41,404 nucleotides of DNA from contig CAJOIU010000020.1 in assembly GCA_905234855.1 (NCBI GenBank), positions 1 to 41,404 on the forward strand, read 5' to 3'. Shown piece by piece: positions 3,404 to 22,326 of this stretch (its first letter is position 1; each line of letters opens with the position of its first letter). Under the pieces are notes generated by a model that saw only the letters and a list, made by a program, of their open reading frames with translations, ran no database searches and was not told the DNA's origin. The DNA comes from an uncultured Oscillospiraceae bacterium. GTDB lineage: Bacteria; Bacillota; Clostridia; Oscillospirales; Oscillospiraceae. Made by a program: the position numbers and the translations under genes.

Positions 3404-3443
3404 GGACGGTGTACCTCGAAAAACGGTACACCGTCCATTTTTT
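3404..3443 (+). terminator. Strong intrinsic terminator after SDR
   Basis: A perfect 12-bp stem (GGACGGTGTACC at 3404-3415, complement at 3425-3436) with a 9-base loop, followed by ATTTTTT. It lies 19 bases after the SDR stop. Confidence 0.9.
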
Positions 3444-3444
3444 C

Positions 3445-4029
3445 AGAAGTCGTAAAAGCGCCGTCGTTTTCGCTCGCCGCATCGGCAATGTGTTTTTAGC
3501 GCAAGCCAAAGAAGCTCATCGCAAGAGCGATATTCCCCACCCTTCAGGTACTTTACATGCCGTCCGTCACCGTTATGATGTTCATTTTTCAATTTTCATC
3601 CTGACATCCGCAGCTTTTCCAACAGCGATTACCTCTAGTTATCACTGCGCAAAATGCATTCTCTGTCGCGGAGCCGCCGTCATTTATCACCCATTTTCTT
3701 CCAACGCGGTTTCGCCGTTTTTCGCGGCGGCTCAACCTTTTCTCATAATTTCACGCGCGAAAGCGCCTCTCCGAATCGGTTGTCATAATTCTATATCGCT
3801 GTTTCAATGCAAAGAGTTATCAACATTTTCAACAGGTTTTTGAACATCGGTCAAATCCTTGAAATATCAAGGAAATTATCATTTTTACCAATTTTTTCAA
3901 ATTCACGGATCGTGTCCAGAAACAAATAGTATCAATTTTGCATTTGACATAATTCTGTGTTCCCAGAGCCGCCTGCAGGAGAGCGTCGAAAAATGCAGGA
4001 TTTGCGCCGCGAGGGCGCGGAAGGCTGCG
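3445..4029. other. 585-base AT-richer gap without a convincing gene
   Basis: This lies between the convergent SDR and radC genes. Plus-strand open frames (3409-3843, 3859-4404) have no ribosome binding site, no recognisable domain and odd composition, so I do not call them. The stretch is clearly lower in GC than the DNA to its right. It contains one DnaA-box-like TTATCAACA at 3817-3825, a lone TTGACA near 3944, and no clear radC terminator. It may be decayed DNA at the edge of the island. Confidence 0.5.
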
Positions 4030-4707
4030 TCAGGCGTCCAGAAGGCCGTCGTCCGAGAGGGAGACGAAATCCTCCCCCGCCACGATGATATGGTCGTAAA
4101 GCACGACTCCCACCTCCGCCAGCACGTCCCGCACCCGCAGGGTGGTGATCTCATCCTCCTTCGAGGGCAGGGCGATGCCGCTCGTATGGTTATGGGCGAG
4201 GATGACGGCGGTGGCGTTATGCATCAGCGCGACCTCCACGATCTTCCGCAGGCGAAACGGCACGGATACCGTGCTTCCCGACCCCACCTGACGGCAGTCC
4301 AAAACCTTCAGCTTTGCGTCGAGGCAGACGAGATAGACCGTCTCCTCCCGGCAGTTCATGAACCGGGGGATGAGATACCGCCCCGCCTCCTCGCTGGTGG
4401 CTAGGATCACGCCCCGCTCCTCCTTGGCCATGCGATAGCGCCGGGCGGCGGCGGGAATGAGCCGGATGAGCGCGGCGGCGCTCTCCCCGATGCCCGGCAC
4501 GGTCATGAGCGCCTCGGGCGTCGCCTCGAATACCGCGTCCAGCGAGCCGAAGGTCTCCAGCAGCGCATGAGCGGTCTCATTCATATCCATGCGGGGCTGG
4601 GCGTAGAAAAGCAGCAGCTCCAGAATCTCATGATCCTTGAAGTTATCAAGCCCGTGCCGCAGGAAGCGCTCCCGCATTCTTTTTCTGTGTCCGCTGTGAT
4701 CCGCCAT
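4030..4707 (-). CDS. radC: RadC family JAB/MPN-domain protein
   Basis: 225 aa, full length for the family. Residues about 1-95 hold helix-hairpin-helix-like sequence (TVPGIGESAAALI near 69-81). Residues about 100-225 are the JAB1/MPN metalloprotease-like domain with the JAMM signature: H172, H174 (AHNHTSG) and D185 (SKED), with a glutamate near 121. RadC was named as a DNA repair protein, but a direct repair role has been questioned and members often accompany mobile elements. It is divergent from the SEDS gene, with a 106-bp shared upstream region. Confidence 0.95.
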   Translation of the reverse strand: MADHSGHRKRMRERFLRHGLDNFKDHEILELLLFYAQPRMDMNETAHALLETFGSLDAVFEATPEALMTVPGIGESAAALIRLIPAAARRYRMAKEERGVILATSEEAGRYLIPRFMNCREETVYLVCLDAKLKVLDCRQVGSGSTVSVPFRLRKIVEVALMHNATAVILAHNHTSGIALPSKEDEITTLRVRDVLAEVGVVLYDHIIVAGEDFVSLSDDGLLDA

Positions 4708-14351: not shown

Positions 14352-17051
14352 TCAGAAGCACACCTTGCAGCGCACGTAGCCCTGTGCGTCCGCCTCTCCC
14401 AGCGTTGTGGTGAAGTAGTTTTTCATGCCGGAGCAGTTGCTTCTCAGGTGGGTCTTATGCCCGCTGGTGCTGACATAGACCGTTGTGTTCTGATCATAGC
14501 TCACGCTGGTGGGTGCCGTTCCGGCCGATGTTGAGCCGGAGGTATCGTCCGTCGGCAGGGCTGTGGCCGCCGCGGTCGTCGTGGACGCCGCTTTCTTGCA
14601 GGTGACGGATTTCACGCTGCTGTAAGCGGATACCACGGCGGACGCGGATGGCTTCGCGCCGCTGTTGGCCGTGACCTTGTAATAGTAAGTCTTCCCTGCT
14701 TCCGCGGCCGAATGAGTGAAGCTCGTGCCGGTCACGGTCTTCAGCGACTTGAACGTCCCGGTCTTGCTGGCGGCATAGTATACGGTATAGCTCTTCGCGC
14801 CGTCCGCCTCCGTCCACGAAAGCACCGGCTTGCCCTTGGTGTTCAGCTTCGCCGTCAGCGTGGGTCTCGCCAGTCCGCACACCGCCGACCGGACGGCGCT
14901 GTAGGCGGATGTTTTCGTGGATGTGCTCACCTTGGCGGTGCTGTTTGCCGTGACCTTATAGTAATAGGTCTTCCCCGCCTTCGCCGTCGTATCGGTAAAG
15001 GTCTTGCCGGTCACGGTCTTGATGGCTTTATATGTGCCGCTTTTGCTCACCGTGCGGTACACGGTATAGCTCTTCGCGCCGTCCACAGCCCCCCACGTCA
15101 GCTTAGGCTTGCCGCTGGCAGCCGTGACGGAGACCTTGACCGTGGGTCGCGCAAGGCCGCATACAGCCGTCTTGACCGCGCTTTTGACTGAGCGGTTATA
15201 GGAACCGGATACGTTCTCGGCGTTATTGGCAACGACCTTATAGTAATACGTCTTGCCGACCTCGGCCTTGGCATGTGTGAAGCTCGTGCCGGTCACGGTC
15301 TTCAGCGCATTATACGTTCCGCTCTTGCTTGTGGCATAGTATACGGTATAGCTTCTCGCGCCGTCCACCTCCGACCATGTCAGCTTCGGCTTGCCGCTGG
15401 CAGCCGTGACGGAGACCTTGACCGTGGGTCGCGCCAGCCTGCACCAGACGATGTCGGTCTGTGCCGCCGCCGAACGAACGGTGGACTCCGCCTTGGTTGC
15501 GGCGTTGTTCGCCACGACCCGATAGTAGTAGGACTCGTTTGCCTCCGCCTTGGTATGCGTGACGGTCGTTTCCGTCACCGTCTTCAGCGTCACATAGGGG
15601 CCGACCTTGCCGACCATATAAAGCACCGTATAGCTTTTGGCGCCGTCCACCTCCGACCACGACAGCACCGGCTTGCCGGTGGCAGCGTCGTGAGTGACCG
15701 TGACCTTCGGCTGCGCCAGCTTACAAGTCGCGGATTTCGGCTCGCTCTGGACGGAGTTCGTCTTTTCCGTACTGCCGATCGCCGCGACCTTGTAGTAATA
15801 GGTCTTGCCCGGCTCGGTATTATTGCTCAAATCCGTGTAGCTGGTGCCGGTCACGCCCTTCTTGATAAGCTTGTAGTCGCCGTTCTTGCTCGTAGAGCGG
15901 TAGACCGAATAGCTTTCGGCGCCCGTGACCTCCTTCCACGAGACCTTGATCTTGCCGCTGGACGCCGCGTTCGTCAGCGTCACCATCGGCTGCGCCAGCT
16001 TACAAGTCGCGGATTTCGGCTCGCTCTGGGCAGAGTTCGCCGCGCTGGTTTTGCCCACCGCCACAACCTTATAGTAATAGGTCTTGCCCGGCTCGATATT
16101 CTTGCTCGTGTCCGTGTAGCTGGTGCCGGTCAGCCCCTTCTTGATGAGGGTGTAGGTCTTGGTATCGCTCGAATAGCGATAGACCGAATAGCTGTCGGCA
16201 CCTGTGATTTTCTTCCACGAGACCATGATCTTGCCCGTGGAGGCCACGGTGGAGAGGGTCACCACCGGCTGCGCCAGCGTACAGGTAACGGAGACCGCAT
16301 CGCTCTGCGCCGAGGCGCGATACCCCGGCAGGGGATCGGCCGCGACCTTGTAGAAATATGTATTCCCGGCGGTCGCCTCGCTGTGGGTCAGCTTGGTGTC
16401 CTCCGTCGTGCCAAGCTTCGTGAAGCTCCCCTTCTCGCTCGCCGCGTAATACACCGTATACGACGCCGCGCCTTCCACTTCCTCCCACTCGATCTGCGGC
16501 TTGCCGGTAGGTTCCAGCACGTTCGCTGCGATCATCGGCGCTTCCAGCTCGATCAGCAGCGCCTCGTTGCCCTCGCCGATCTCGATCGCGGAAGGATCCC
16601 CCTCAAAATCGACGTATTCCAGCGCATTGCACCCGGCAAAGGCGAACTCCTCGACCACCGCCATGCTCTCGGGGAAATAGATCTGTGTCAGCGATCCGCA
16701 GGCGTAGAAGGCGCGGATGCCGATCCGCTCCATAGTGGAGGGCAGCTCGGCGTATTCCAGATTCCAGCATTCGTAGAACGCCTCGCTGCCGATGCTCGTA
16801 ACGCCCTCGTCGATGACGACCGAGGTGATCTCATCCCGCACATCGAACCATGGCGGGGCGGGCGCCTCCTCCGCGAAATAGTGCATGGTATAGAAATCCC
16901 ACATCTCGCCCTCGCCGCTGATATAGAGGACGCCATCCTCCAGCGACCATGTCAGGTCGTCGCCGCAGGCGGAATCATCCGCCAGCGCCGACAGCGGCAG
17001 CAGCGAGAAGCACAGCAAAAGTGCCAGAACAAAGGATACTGTTCGCTTCAT
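14352..17051 (-). CDS. Secreted BspA-like leucine-rich / fibronectin III repeat protein
   Basis: 899 aa. Signal peptide at residues 1-24 ending SALA. Residues about 70-150 form a short BspA-type LRR_5 block (SIGSEAFYECWNLEY, IGIRAFYACGSLTQI, VEEFAFAGCNALEY). Seven Fn3-like repeats of about 93 aa follow (about 171-820), each with W..V.GA.SY.VY and GKTYYYKV, joined by C(K/G/T/R)LA(Q/R)P linkers. A Thr/Ser/Ala spacer leads to a C-terminal module (VYVSTSGHKTHLRSNCSG, then YVRCKVCF) that resembles the small Cys/His metal-binding ends of clostridial secreted proteins. No LPXTG or SLH anchor is seen. Likely adhesin or surface scaffold. Last gene of an operon, 25 bases after the ATP-grasp gene. Confidence 0.88.
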   Translation of the reverse strand: MKRTVSFVLALLLCFSLLPLSALADDSACGDDLTWSLEDGVLYISGEGEMWDFYTMHYFAEEAPAPPWFDVRDEITSVVIDEGVTSIGSEAFYECWNLEYAELPSTMERIGIRAFYACGSLTQIYFPESMAVVEEFAFAGCNALEYVDFEGDPSAIEIGEGNEALLIELEAPMIAANVLEPTGKPQIEWEEVEGAASYTVYYAASEKGSFTKLGTTEDTKLTHSEATAGNTYFYKVAADPLPGYRASAQSDAVSVTCTLAQPVVTLSTVASTGKIMVSWKKITGADSYSVYRYSSDTKTYTLIKKGLTGTSYTDTSKNIEPGKTYYYKVVAVGKTSAANSAQSEPKSATCKLAQPMVTLTNAASSGKIKVSWKEVTGAESYSVYRSTSKNGDYKLIKKGVTGTSYTDLSNNTEPGKTYYYKVAAIGSTEKTNSVQSEPKSATCKLAQPKVTVTHDAATGKPVLSWSEVDGAKSYTVLYMVGKVGPYVTLKTVTETTVTHTKAEANESYYYRVVANNAATKAESTVRSAAAQTDIVWCRLARPTVKVSVTAASGKPKLTWSEVDGARSYTVYYATSKSGTYNALKTVTGTSFTHAKAEVGKTYYYKVVANNAENVSGSYNRSVKSAVKTAVCGLARPTVKVSVTAASGKPKLTWGAVDGAKSYTVYRTVSKSGTYKAIKTVTGKTFTDTTAKAGKTYYYKVTANSTAKVSTSTKTSAYSAVRSAVCGLARPTLTAKLNTKGKPVLSWTEADGAKSYTVYYAASKTGTFKSLKTVTGTSFTHSAAEAGKTYYYKVTANSGAKPSASAVVSAYSSVKSVTCKKAASTTTAAATALPTDDTSGSTSAGTAPTSVSYDQNTTVYVSTSGHKTHLRSNCSGMKNYFTTTLGEADAQGYVRCKVCF
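14589..16541 (-). repeat. Seven-copy Fn3-type coding repeat array
   Basis: About 280 bp per unit. Some copies are nearly identical at the DNA level: the block at 15106-15151 recurs at 15388-15433 (offset 282) and the block at 15709-15750 recurs at 15988-16029 (offset 279). This points to recent unit duplication and makes the array prone to copy-number change. Confidence 0.8.
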
Positions 17052-19920: not shown

Positions 19921-21066
19921 TCAGTCCTCGAAGGGGAACTTATAAGGCAGGTTGTATTGGTCGCGCACGGCGATAAATTCCTTCTGCACGGCCTCTCCCA
20001 CGGGCACGCCCTTGTCGGCGCGGAAGACGCTCGTCATATACGCCTTCTCGCCCGCGGTGAAGATGCGGGGCTGGCCGGGAGCCTTCTCGGAGGCGCGGAG
20101 CTGGCGGAGGATATCGCCGCAGGTCTTGCGGAAGGAATCCTGCCCGAGGAACGCATCCGGGTCGATCACGATGAAGAAGTGACCGAGGTGATAGGGCTGC
20201 TTCTCCCCGTTTTCGCCGATGCCGGAAAGCGCCTTCAAAAACGCGCCGCCCTGCAGCGCCGCGGAGAGCACCTCCACCACGGTGGCGTAGCCGTAGCCCT
20301 TATAGCCCGCCAGCTCCTCGCCGATGCCGCCGAGGGGCGCGAGGGCGGCCTTTCCCTTCGTGAGATCCACAAGGATCTGGTCGCTGTCCGTCATGGCGGA
20401 GCCGTCGTGGCCGATGACCATGCCCGCCGGGGTGGGCATACCGCTGCGGGAATAGAACTCGATCTTGCCCCGCTGGGTGATGGAGGTGGCGCAGTCGAGG
20501 CAGAAGGGGAACGGCTCGTCCGTGGGCATGGCGATCGTCAAGGGGTTTGTGCCGAGCATGTTCTCCACGCCGAAGGTGGGCGCGATGGAGGGACGGGCGT
20601 TCGTGCCGGTGATGCCGATCATGCCCTCGTCCGTGGCCATGGTCGCCCAATAGCCCGCGATGCCGTAATGGGTGGAGTTGCGGATGGCGCCCATGGCGAT
20701 GCCATAGGTCTTGGCCTTCTCGATGAGGGATTTCATCATCTTATACGAGGCCACCATGCCCATGCCGTCGTGGGCGTCGGCCACGACGGTGGTGGGGGTC
20801 TCCCGCAGGATCTCATACTCCGTCACCGGGTTCTGGATCCCGGCGTTGATGCGGTCGATATAGATGGGCTTGAAGCGGTTGCAGCCGTGGCTCTCGATGC
20901 CGCGGCGGTCGCTCTCCATGAGGACGTCCGCGCAGATGGCGGCATCCTCCGCCGGAACGCCCACAGCCTTGAAGGCGTCCGTCATGAAGCTCCCGATCAG
21001 CTCCCAAGGCACATACGGTCTGGTTTCGGGGTCCTTTTCCATATTGAGGTCGGTGATCTGTGCCAT
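19921..21066 (-). CDS. Ldh_2 family malate/L-lactate-type dehydrogenase
   Basis: 381 aa. The Ldh_2 family (malate/L-sulfolactate/ureidoglycolate dehydrogenases) is shown by DRRGIESHGCNRF near residue 54, NSTHYGIAGYWATMA, GTNPLTIAMPTDEPFPFCLD, and GYKGYGYATVVEVLSAAL. The histidine of STHYG is the catalytic base in the family. NAD(P)-dependent oxidation of a 2-hydroxyacid is expected; the exact substrate cannot be assigned. It is the third gene behind the barnase and barstar-redox genes, 27 bases after the latter, with its own AAAGGAGAG. Confidence 0.9.
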   Translation of the reverse strand: MAQITDLNMEKDPETRPYVPWELIGSFMTDAFKAVGVPAEDAAICADVLMESDRRGIESHGCNRFKPIYIDRINAGIQNPVTEYEILRETPTTVVADAHDGMGMVASYKMMKSLIEKAKTYGIAMGAIRNSTHYGIAGYWATMATDEGMIGITGTNARPSIAPTFGVENMLGTNPLTIAMPTDEPFPFCLDCATSITQRGKIEFYSRSGMPTPAGMVIGHDGSAMTDSDQILVDLTKGKAALAPLGGIGEELAGYKGYGYATVVEVLSAALQGGAFLKALSGIGENGEKQPYHLGHFFIVIDPDAFLGQDSFRKTCGDILRQLRASEKAPGQPRIFTAGEKAYMTSVFRADKGVPVGEAVQKEFIAVRDQYNLPYKFPFED

Positions 21067-21093: not shown

Positions 21094-21756
21094 TTACAGT
21101 CTTCCCGTCTCGCGCAGCAGCGCTTCGACGAGGGATACGCATTCATAAACCATGCCGTCGCAATGGGCGGAGCGGTCGCCGCCCCGCTCGCGGTTGAGGC
21201 GCAGCAGGTCGCCGCAGTCGAACAGGCCGTCATGACGCTCCCGCAGCCGGCGGTAGTATTCCCCCACGGTCGCGGGATCCTCCGCGCCGAAGAGGCCGAG
21301 GGCCATGAGGCCGCCGGTGATCGCGCCGCATACGGAGGCGCGCTTCATGCCGCTGCCGAAATTCGCCGTGACCCGGCAGGCCGTTTCCGCGTCCATGCCC
21401 GCGTCCTCCGCGAAGGCGGCGATGACCGACTGGGCGCAGTTGTAGTGCCGCTCATGGCTTTCGCGCATCGCCCGCGCCCGGCGGAGGAACCGGCTCCCGC
21501 CCTCCTCCCACCGCACCGTTACGGAGGGCGGCAGATCGTCGAACACCCGGCGGAGCGCGGCGATATAGGCCGTCATGCCGCCGTCCGCCTGATCCGCGTT
21601 CCGGAAAACGATATCGCGGGGCGCGCCCTCGGACAAAACGTCGTGCAGCGCGTCAAGGTTATTCCCGTAATGCTCCGGCAGCGCCAGCGCCTCCCGCAGC
21701 AGCCCGTGGAGCTGCTCCCGGCTCGAAACGCCGGCCAGATCGATCTCACAGGTCAT
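21094..21756 (-). CDS. Barstar-like inhibitor fused to C_GCAxxG_C_C redox domain
   Basis: 220 aa. Residues 1-86 match barstar: EIDLAGVSSREQLHGLL, then ALPEHYGNNLDALHDVL, with D35 and D39 at the same positions as the barnase-binding aspartates of barstar; Y29 and W38 are both histidine here. Residues about 97-215 match the C_GCAxxG_C_C family: YNCAQSVIAAFAED (C107), ANFGSGM, VCGAITGGLMALGLFG (C143), then C181, C199 and C206. The family is thought redox-active. No signal peptide: cytoplasmic. Its GGGGAGG site lies inside the end of the barnase gene, whose stop is three bases before this ATG. Likely role: protect the cell from its own ribonuclease; why it carries a redox domain is unknown. Confidence 0.85.
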   Translation of the reverse strand: MTCEIDLAGVSSREQLHGLLREALALPEHYGNNLDALHDVLSEGAPRDIVFRNADQADGGMTAYIAALRRVFDDLPPSVTVRWEEGGSRFLRRARAMRESHERHYNCAQSVIAAFAEDAGMDAETACRVTANFGSGMKRASVCGAITGGLMALGLFGAEDPATVGEYYRRLRERHDGLFDCGDLLRLNRERGGDRSAHCDGMVYECVSLVEALLRETGRL

Positions 21757-21759
21757 AAC

Positions 21760-22326
21760 TCATTCCTCCCCGTAGAGCAGCGTAAAGCTCTCGTAATGGT
21801 CGTCCGTATAGTATATGAGCCCGTCGTTCGAATACACGATGCGCTTCGCGCCCCGGCCGGACGCGCCCGCGGTGTCGATGTCGCATTCGTGAAACTCCCG
21901 CCCCGGCGCTTCGGGCAGAAGCCCCTCGTAGTTGCCGAAGCGGTCGCCGCCGATGCTCTTGCCGGGGGCGTATGCCTCCAAGCCGCCGCCGCTCCAGCCA
22001 AGCGCCCGCGCCTCGTCCTTCGTGATGAAGTTGCCGGGCAGCTCGCCGTAGGTATGCAGGTAAAGCGCCACGGAGTCCTTATCGGAATACCAGCCCTCGG
22101 GATCGAGGGTCGGCGTTTCCGGCTCCGCGGGCGTTTCCGGCTCCGCGGGCGTTTCCGGCTCCGCGGGAGCGGCCGTTTCCTCCGCAGCCTCACGGATGAC
22201 CTCCGCCAGCTCCGCCGCGGCGTCCACCGCGGCAGCCACATCCTCCGTCTTGACGGCGCAGCCCGTCAGCAGCGTCAATGCAAGACACAGCGCCAGCAGC
22301 AGCGCCATGATCCGAGTTTGCTTCAT
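21760..22326 (-). CDS. Lipoprotein barnase-family ribonuclease
   Basis: 188 aa. A lipoprotein signal peptide with lipobox LTGC (C23), a helical Ala/Glu stretch, a linker with three perfect AEPETP-type repeats (about 55-72), then a barnase domain (79-186). Matches to barnase: ITKDEARALGW, PGKSIGGDRFGNYEG, and DDHYESFT. All catalytic residues known from barnase have counterparts: K103 (K27), E147 (E73), R158 and R162 (R83, R87) and H177 (H102), so it should be an active RNase held on the outer face of the membrane. Followed at once by a barstar-type gene. It might serve nutrient RNA degradation or competition. Confidence 0.9.
   Translation of the reverse strand: MKQTRIMALLLALCLALTLLTGCAVKTEDVAAAVDAAAELAEVIREAAEETAAPAEPETPAEPETPAEPETPTLDPEGWYSDKDSVALYLHTYGELPGNFITKDEARALGWSGGGLEAYAPGKSIGGDRFGNYEGLLPEAPGREFHECDIDTAGASGRGAKRIVYSNDGLIYYTDDHYESFTLLYGEE
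22113..22166. repeat. Three perfect 18-bp tandem repeats in the barnase linker
   Basis: The unit GCGTTTCCGGCTCCGCGG occurs at 22113, 22131 and 22149 (plus strand). Each adds one six-residue Glu/Pro-rich step to the linker between the lipid anchor and the nuclease, so slippage would change reach without breaking the frame. Confidence 0.85.

What the first reader, a model, noticed from the sequence alone, without database searches (positions are those of the whole stretch)
21094..22326. Lipoprotein barnase with a barstar fused to a C_GCAxxG_C_C redox domain
The nuclease keeps all barnase catalytic residues (K, E, R, R, H) and is anchored outside the cell. Directly behind it is a cytoplasmic barstar whose C-terminal half is a cysteine-rich redox-family domain, an arrangement I do not recognise as described. 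Both lie in an operon with an Ldh_2 dehydrogenase. It might be an immunity protein whose hold on the nuclease depends on redox state, or a coupling of RNA scavenging to metabolism. Barstar's Y29 and W38 are both histidine here, hinting at adapted specificity.
Basis: partly seen in the sequence, partly recalled or inferred. Interest (0 to 1): 0.78.

Follow-up and report, generated by a model that had tools for sequence, protein, structure and literature searches.

The report
Immunity protein repeatedly fused to enzymes
The protein that should shield this gut bacterium from its own RNA-cutting enzyme is joined to a redox-type protein domain, and in related bacteria the same shield has been joined, again and again, to quite different enzymes, which suggests that toxin immunity keeps getting welded to whatever gene lies next to it.

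Summary
A barnase lipoprotein (21760-22326, minus) is followed by one protein (21094-21756) made of a barstar domain and a C_GCAxxG_C_C domain, then an Ldh_2 dehydrogenase. The redox reading is not supported. In the same genus 25 of 35 genomes carry barnase-barstar, and the barstar is fused to C_GCAxxG_C_C in 4, to a GNAT acetyltransferase in 10 and to NUDIX in 2. In the family and order I found further fusions: M32 peptidase, two PLP enzymes, a NuoE-type [2Fe-2S] subunit, GtrA, DUF169, LMW phosphatase, beta-helix, radical SAM, DUF6847, plus one contig-end domain without Pfam match. All counted cases sit C-terminal of a barstar beside a barnase with intact active-site residues. Intermediates exist: GNAT as a separate gene overlapping barstar by ATGA, and junctions where the partner's ribosome-binding site and start codon are still readable. 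A control antitoxin (HicB) shows no such fusion. Best reading: barnase-barstar heads short operons, and the immunity gene has repeatedly fused in frame with the next gene, giving two-function chimeras; C_GCAxxG_C_C is one passenger among many. Why fusions persist is open: lock-in, dosage, or near-neutral drift. I found no earlier report in the papers searched.

The parts
21760..22326 (-). Barnase-type ribonuclease with lipoprotein signal (LTGC), 188 aa
   Evidence: PF00545 71.7 bits; phmmer to barnase E 3e-28; active-site residues kept
21754..21762 (-). Junction: barnase stop (TGA), one codon, barstar start (ATG), all in one frame; the TGA reads CGA in G017, so barnase-barstar-CGC is one open frame there
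21502..21756 (-). Barstar domain (aa 1-85) of the fusion protein
   Evidence: PF01337 57.8 bits, aa 2-75; Foldseek to barstar structures
21500..21509 (-). GGGAGGAGGG in the linker, perhaps a remnant of the ribosome-binding site of a once separate C_GCAxxG_C_C gene (AGGAGG plus ATG still present in sister G017)
   Evidence: the remnant reading is inference
21121..21444 (-). C_GCAxxG_C_C domain (aa 105-212) of the fusion protein
   Evidence: PF09719 78.2 bits
19921..21066 (-). Ldh_2 family dehydrogenase, 27 nt downstream; found beside the fusion in 4 of 4 genomes
   Evidence: PF02615 392 bits

Best explanation
The protein is a two-part chimera: a barstar that neutralises, in the cytoplasm, the exported barnase encoded just upstream, and an intact C_GCAxxG_C_C domain carried along as a passenger. 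It arose because barnase and barstar head a short, closely spaced operon, and the start region of the next gene became fused in frame to the barstar (loss of the barstar stop, or an indel at an overlap). In sister G017 the passenger's own ribosome-binding site and ATG are still in the linker; in this window no start codon is left at that place (the nearest in-frame ATG lies 9 codons further in, with a weak ribosome-binding match), so the domain is probably made mainly as a barstar fusion. The same kind of event happened with 13 partner kinds from 12 Pfam families in this family and order. SHOWN: recurrent fusions, separate-gene intermediates, unfused orthologues, remnant start signals, conserved active sites. 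INFERRED: that this barstar binds this barnase, that the passenger is active, and that the fusion is kept because immunity and a host enzyme have become one unit that cannot be lost piecemeal.
For: Genus: fused to C_GCAxxG_C_C 4, GNAT 10, NUDIX 2; GNAT overlapping but separate 2; none of these 7; total 25 of 35 genomes. Family: 23 of 145 barstar matches (138 of 400 genomes) have an enzyme-size C-terminal domain, against 0 of 118 for HicB, longest open frame 213 aa; Fisher p 6e-7, shared descent ignored. Partners by Pfam. Intermediates: ATGA overlap in G010 and G002; DUF6847 separate in G754 and G704, fused in G699. NuoE stands alone in G344, G409, G114 (85-90% identity) and is fused in G378, with AGGAGG and GTG kept in the linker. 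Start codon plus strong AGGAGG match kept at 6 of 37 junctions. One GNAT match per genome in 29 of 35; in 3 of its 10 fusions no start codon lies from codon -12 to +30 around the junction. K27, E73, R83, R87, H102 and barstar D35, D39 kept in 37 of 37 fused pairs. Tree: 14 fused/unfused changes, 17 by partner.
Against: No binding, expression or enzyme data. Fusions are a minority in the family (23 of 145), 3 of 83 barstar genomes elsewhere in the order and 0 of 17 outside it. A benefit of fusion is not shown: stop loss after a tolerant barstar C-terminus could be near neutral. HicB is only one control family. A close co-directional gene is not general: a mechanical count finds one starting within -30 to +25 nt at 28 of 105 unfused loci and none up to +150 nt at 38 of 105 (ORFs of 70 aa or more, not verified as genes, a few loci counted twice). 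The tree sample is enriched for fusions and its alignment is short.
Confidence: 0.62

Rival explanations
1. Near-neutral read-through: the barstar C-terminus tolerates extension, its stop is lost by chance where a co-directional gene follows closely, and the fusion has no use of its own; where an inner start remains, the partner is still made alone.
For: Partners share no theme; start and strong ribosome-binding match kept at 6 of 37 junctions; 28 of 105 unfused loci have a co-directional ORF within -30 to +25 nt.
Against: HicB, also a small antitoxin in the same family, shows 0 of 118. Several fusions are shared by species that have diverged (C_GCAxxG_C_C proteins 58-63% identical). In 3 of 10 GNAT fusions no start codon remains near the junction, although each genome gave only one GNAT match, so that GNAT depends on the fusion.
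Confidence: 0.25
2. Redox-gated immunity: cysteines of the C_GCAxxG_C_C domain control the hold of barstar on barnase.
For: The family is called putative redox-active (PF09719) and its cysteines are kept in the fused forms.
Against: Barstars beside barnase are fused to GNAT, NUDIX, M32, DUF169 and others in related genomes. Contact acids D35 and D39 are kept in 37 of 37 fused pairs, so inhibition needs no extra domain. The same domain without a detected barstar is common (52 loci).
Confidence: 0.06
3. Occupancy sensor: unexported barnase bound to the barstar half changes the activity of the fused enzyme, linking export state to metabolism.
For: Physical linkage in one chain; confident two-domain model.
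Against: Non-homologous partners of unrelated chemistry would each need their own coupling; domain orientation is not confidently predicted (pTM 0.70; 0.52 for the G017 frame).
Confidence: 0.07

Closest known systems
Barnase-barstar pair (toxin-then-immunity gene order; Zhang et al. 2012, PMC3482391, passages seen)
   Same: Same two families, gene order, conserved catalytic and contact residues
   Different: The barstar carries a C-terminal domain that differs from lineage to lineage; no such fusion is mentioned in the passages seen
C_GCAxxG_C_C family (PF09719 / TIGR01909), stand-alone
   Same: Full domain, cysteines kept, 54-62% identity to six stand-alone proteins from genomes titled Lachnospiraceae, Eubacteriales, Clostridiales or Kandleria
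   Different: No barnase or barstar hit near the stand-alone forms (0 of 52 loci)
Deletion-born gene fusions (PMC12803068, abstract and outline seen) and translational coupling of overlapping genes (PMC10666635, passages seen)
   Same: Rearrangement or tightly coupled neighbours as a source of fusion proteins
   Different: Here one immunity domain is the repeated N-terminal half of many separate fusions

Membership tests
Barnase (PF00545) | Profile match over cut-off and catalytic K27, E73, R83, R87, H102 | tested here: met
   (residue numbering recalled)
Barnase (PF00545) | Ribonuclease activity | not testable with these tools
   needs an assay
Barstar (PF01337) | Profile over cut-off, barstar fold, contact residues D35 and D39 | tested here: met
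Barstar (PF01337) | Adjacent to barnase | tested here: met
   4 of 4 genomes with the two-domain protein
Barstar (PF01337) | Binds and inhibits the cognate barnase | not testable with these tools
   needs an assay; the G017 single frame gave pTM 0.52, uninformative
C_GCAxxG_C_C (PF09719) | Profile over Pfam cut-off | tested here: met
   78.2 bits, cut-off 27
C_GCAxxG_C_C (TIGR01909) | Profile over NCBIfam cut-off | tested here: not met
   44.2 bits, cut-off 47.4; so a member by Pfam, not by NCBIfam's narrower model
C_GCAxxG_C_C | Redox activity | not testable with these tools
   no solved relative of this half in the Foldseek list shown

The most novel reading that the evidence does not exclude
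Barnase-barstar acts as an addiction cassette that repeatedly welds its immunity gene to a host gene, so that neither the toxin pair nor the captured enzyme can be lost alone: natural gene entanglement by fusion to an antitoxin, with 13 kinds of captured partner in one bacterial order.
Probability: 0.33. Interest if true: 0.87.

Novelty: new variant of a known kind. Interest (0 to 1): 0.76.

Why it matters
Barnase-barstar is among the best-studied protein pairs, yet I found no report that its inhibitor is recurrently fused to metabolic enzymes (listings). The stepwise series (separate, ATGA overlap, fusion with remnant start, fusion without a start) shows gene fusion under way and allows a direct test of whether toxin immunity can stabilise, or be stabilised by, a host gene. 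It also warns against guilt-by-fusion inference: here the fused partner says little about the function of the barstar.

Tried and rejected
Redox switch: rejected as leading idea because fusions to partners of other chemistry are more numerous. Adapted specificity from H29/H38: rejected, both occur in unfused barstars. Long open frames taken at face value: many only run over upstream sequence and are not fusions (L202, L203, L206, L209, L210, L226-L230); not counted. Barstars at the C-terminus of other sequence without a barnase hit were not counted: phosphatase-like L207 and L211, PAP2-like L217, L219, L223, L224, MarR-like L220, unidentified L221, L266, L267, and L298-L301 in the phylum sample. 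Tandem barstars (L249, L261-L263) and short acidic or Cys-rich tails (L271, L273, L274) were not counted. L222, L225 and L269 stayed unclear and were not counted. My own barstar profile missed some loci that Pfam found (L217, L219, L221, L223-L225; L269, L292, L298); the frames of all but L269 were then looked at by coordinates. Complex model from the G017 single frame: pTM 0.52, uninformative. Foldseek listed no convincing relative for the C_GCAxxG_C_C half. NCBIfam on the barnase gave only weak matches below cut-off. Whether InterPro already lists these architectures could not be checked.

Full report
OBSERVATION. On the minus strand the window holds, in transcription order, a barnase lipoprotein (21760-22326), a 220-aa protein (21094-21756) and an Ldh_2 dehydrogenase (19921-21066). 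Pfam gives Ribonuclease 71.7 bits for the first, Barstar 57.8 bits (aa 2-75) plus C_GCAxxG_C_C 78.2 bits (aa 105-212) for the second, and Ldh_2 392 bits for the third, all over their cut-offs; NCBIfam's TIGR01909 stays just under its cut-off (44.2 against 47.4). phmmer against solved structures finds barnase at E 3e-28 and barstar at E 4e-5. The predicted structure has mean pLDDT 92.5 with pTM 0.70, so the domains are confident and their mutual orientation is not. Foldseek matches the first half to barstar (TM-score over target up to 0.84); the other listed matches have TM-scores of 0.31 or less.

IS THE ARCHITECTURE TIED TO BARNASE? A search of 99 related genomes gave the full-length fusion in 4: G000 (this genome), G017, G022, G023, all of one genus. 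A pattern scan of the collection of 84,980 species genomes returned 59 loci: 2 full-length, 52 matching essentially the C_GCAxxG_C_C half, 5 matching only the barstar half. The 2 full-length contigs are titled uncultured Oscillospiraceae bacterium isolates Red_deer_3 and Red_deer_4, and their contig lengths equal those of G017 and G023. None of the 52 gave a barnase or barstar hit in the DNA fetched around it, with the window's own sequences as phmmer queries, so distant homologues could be missed. In the four genomes with the fusion, barnase is directly upstream and Ldh_2 directly downstream. At E 1e-50 the Ldh_2 orthologue (81-89% identity) occurs in only these four of 35 genomes of the genus; two others have a relative at 31-36%.

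THE MAIN RESULT. In the genus, barnase occurs in 25 of 35 genomes and barstar in the same 25, next to each other in 25 of 25. The barstar is fused at its C-terminus to C_GCAxxG_C_C in 4, to a GNAT acetyltransferase in 10 (G018, G012, G034, G009, G032, G015, G033, G014, G026, G030) and to a NUDIX domain in 2 (G001, G003). In 2 (G010, G002) the GNAT is a separate gene overlapping the barstar stop by 4 nt (ATGA). The remaining 7 have none of these partners fused or overlapping.

WIDER SURVEY. In 400 genomes of the family, 138 have a barstar (145 matches). I looked at every match with an open frame of 150 aa or more (fetched, or the window itself). 23 of 145 have an enzyme-size C-terminal domain: the genus above (5 in this sample), M32 carboxypeptidase (4), PLP-dependent enzymes of two kinds, ammonia-lyase-like and threonine-synthase-like (1 each; Pfam gives only PALP, the finer names are my reading), 2Fe-2S NuoE type (1), GtrA (2), DUF169 (6), low-molecular-weight phosphatase (1), right-handed beta-helix (2). 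One representative of each kind was confirmed by Pfam with both parts over cut-off. In the order, 96 of 394 genomes have a barstar, 83 of them outside the family. Three of these 83 have such a fusion: radical SAM (G663), DUF6847 (G699), and a domain without Pfam match at a contig end (G543). In the phylum sample 20 of 398 genomes have a barstar; of the 17 outside the order none showed an enzyme-size domain behind the barstar. So there are 13 identified partner kinds from 12 Pfam families, plus one unidentified.

CONTROL. HicB (PF15919) is also a small antitoxin that usually follows its toxin gene (recalled). In 280 genomes of the same family it gives 118 matches in 65 genomes, longest open frame 213 aa for a protein of about 140 aa, so no enzyme-size fusion. 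23 of 145 against 0 of 118 gives Fisher p 6e-7; by genomes, 23 of 138 against 0 of 65, p 9e-5; neither corrects for shared descent. One control family is a limited control.

HOW THE FUSIONS AROSE. In G012, of the same genus, barnase and barstar overlap as ATGGTGA; in the window they are 3 nt apart and in frame. Some unfused barstars are followed by a close co-directional gene of varying kind: asparaginase (-4 nt), short-chain dehydrogenase (-4, +3), a class I tRNA-synthetase-like protein (-11), PrsW (+2 to +17), LtrA (+10), a membrane transporter (-1) (one of each checked by Pfam). A mechanical count gives a co-directional ORF starting within -30 to +25 nt at 28 of 105 unfused loci and none up to +150 nt at 38 of 105 (ORFs not verified as genes, a few loci counted twice). 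The same partner appears separate in one species and fused in another of the same genus: GNAT as above; DUF6847 separate in G754 and G704 and fused in G699. NuoE is followed by a NuoF-like and a hydrogenase-like gene (my reading of the sequences) and stands alone in G344, G409 and G114 (85-90% identity), but is fused behind barnase-barstar in G378. In G378 AGGAGG and GTG can still be read inside the linker, at the place of the NuoE start. In G017 the linker holds GAGGAGG and ATGAGCAAATAC, resembling the starts of stand-alone C_GCAxxG_C_C genes. In this window the same place reads GGGAGGAGGG with no start codon from codon -6 to +8; the next in-frame ATG is at codon +9 with a 3-of-6 match to AGGAGG. 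In G022 there is none from -12 to +30. A start codon with a 5- or 6-of-6 match to AGGAGG is kept at 6 of 37 junctions. In 3 of 10 GNAT fusions no start codon lies from codon -12 to +30, in a fourth only a GTG at +16, although each of the 29 GNAT-bearing genomes of the genus (of 35) gave just one GNAT match at E 1e-25. G020 and G001 share the genes flanking GNAT, with barnase-barstar-NUDIX between them only in G001; whether that is gain or loss I cannot say. In the genus of G378 the gene upstream of barnase is shared with G409, G202 and G307, so there a rearrangement downstream of barstar is as likely as an insertion of the pair.

BOTH HALVES LOOK ALIVE. In 115 adjacent pairs (of 119 loci tried; fused loci are over-represented by design), K27, E73, R83, R87 and H102 are kept in 37 of 37 fused pairs, and barstar D35 and D39 in 37 of 37. 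R59 of barnase is Y in 26 of 37 fused and 41 of 78 unfused pairs, as in this window. Barstar position 38 is H in 15 of 37 fused and 10 of 78 unfused; position 29 is H in 2 of 37 and 4 of 78. On a tree of the pairs, parsimony needs 14 changes between fused and unfused and 17 between partner kinds; alignments are short and the numbers rough. The C_GCAxxG_C_C clade is monophyletic on a long branch in the genus tree.

MECHANISM. I take the protein as a modular chimera: barstar protecting the cytoplasm from barnase before export, and an enzyme domain carried along. The distance from the barstar NLDAL motif to a conserved partner motif varies between species (66-79, 72-77, 71-80 and 77-81 residues in four fusion kinds), always with the frame open. 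That fits selection to keep the frame, but these loci were chosen as fused, so it is weak evidence. The most interesting reading is lock-in: once the enzyme is made as a barstar fusion, deleting the cassette removes the enzyme, and deleting the fusion exposes the cell to barnase. That part is inference. Near-neutral stop loss is the main rival.

ODD CASE. In G017 the barnase stop TGA reads CGA, giving one open frame barnase-barstar-C_GCAxxG_C_C with an inner GTG. It is one draft genome and may be an error. Its predicted structure had pTM 0.52 and does not inform on the complex.

LITERATURE. Searches for barstar with fusion, acetyltransferase, Oscillospiraceae, immunity protein, gene fusion, polymorphic toxin, Firmicutes and related terms and for C_GCAxxG_C_C listed no paper that describes such fusions, judging by titles and abstract starts; one search listed 12 of 314. 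Of Zhang et al. 2012 (PMC3482391) I saw the passages that mention barstar or barnase: barstar is described as specific to barnase-type toxins, with no enzyme fusion in those passages; its supplementary files were not seen. Of PMC12803068 I saw abstract and outline; of PMC10666635, passages. Subscription papers and InterPro architectures were not searchable.

Noticed in passing
L207 (frame 2-757) and L211 (frame 3427-4119): A low-molecular-weight-phosphatase-like protein (my reading) with a barstar at its C-terminus and no barnase hit nearby, the reverse order of the fusion in L212.
   Followed up: partly
L217, L219, L223, L224: A distant barstar-like domain at the C-terminus of a PAP2-like membrane phosphatase (my reading), without a barnase hit.
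   Followed up: no
L271 3240-3701, L273 3020-3469: Barstars beside barnase with a tail of about 46-50 residues made almost only of Glu, Asp, Cys and Gly.
   Followed up: no
L261, L262, L263: Tandem barstar domains in one protein with barnase-like hits nearby, resembling immunity arrays of polymorphic toxins.
   Followed up: no
L140 6661-7740: Barnase, barstar and C_GCAxxG_C_C in one open frame (stop TGA replaced by CGA), with a possible inner GTG start.
   Followed up: partly
window 14352-17051: An 899-aa protein with a signal-like N-terminus and several similar repeats of roughly 80-100 residues.
   Followed up: no
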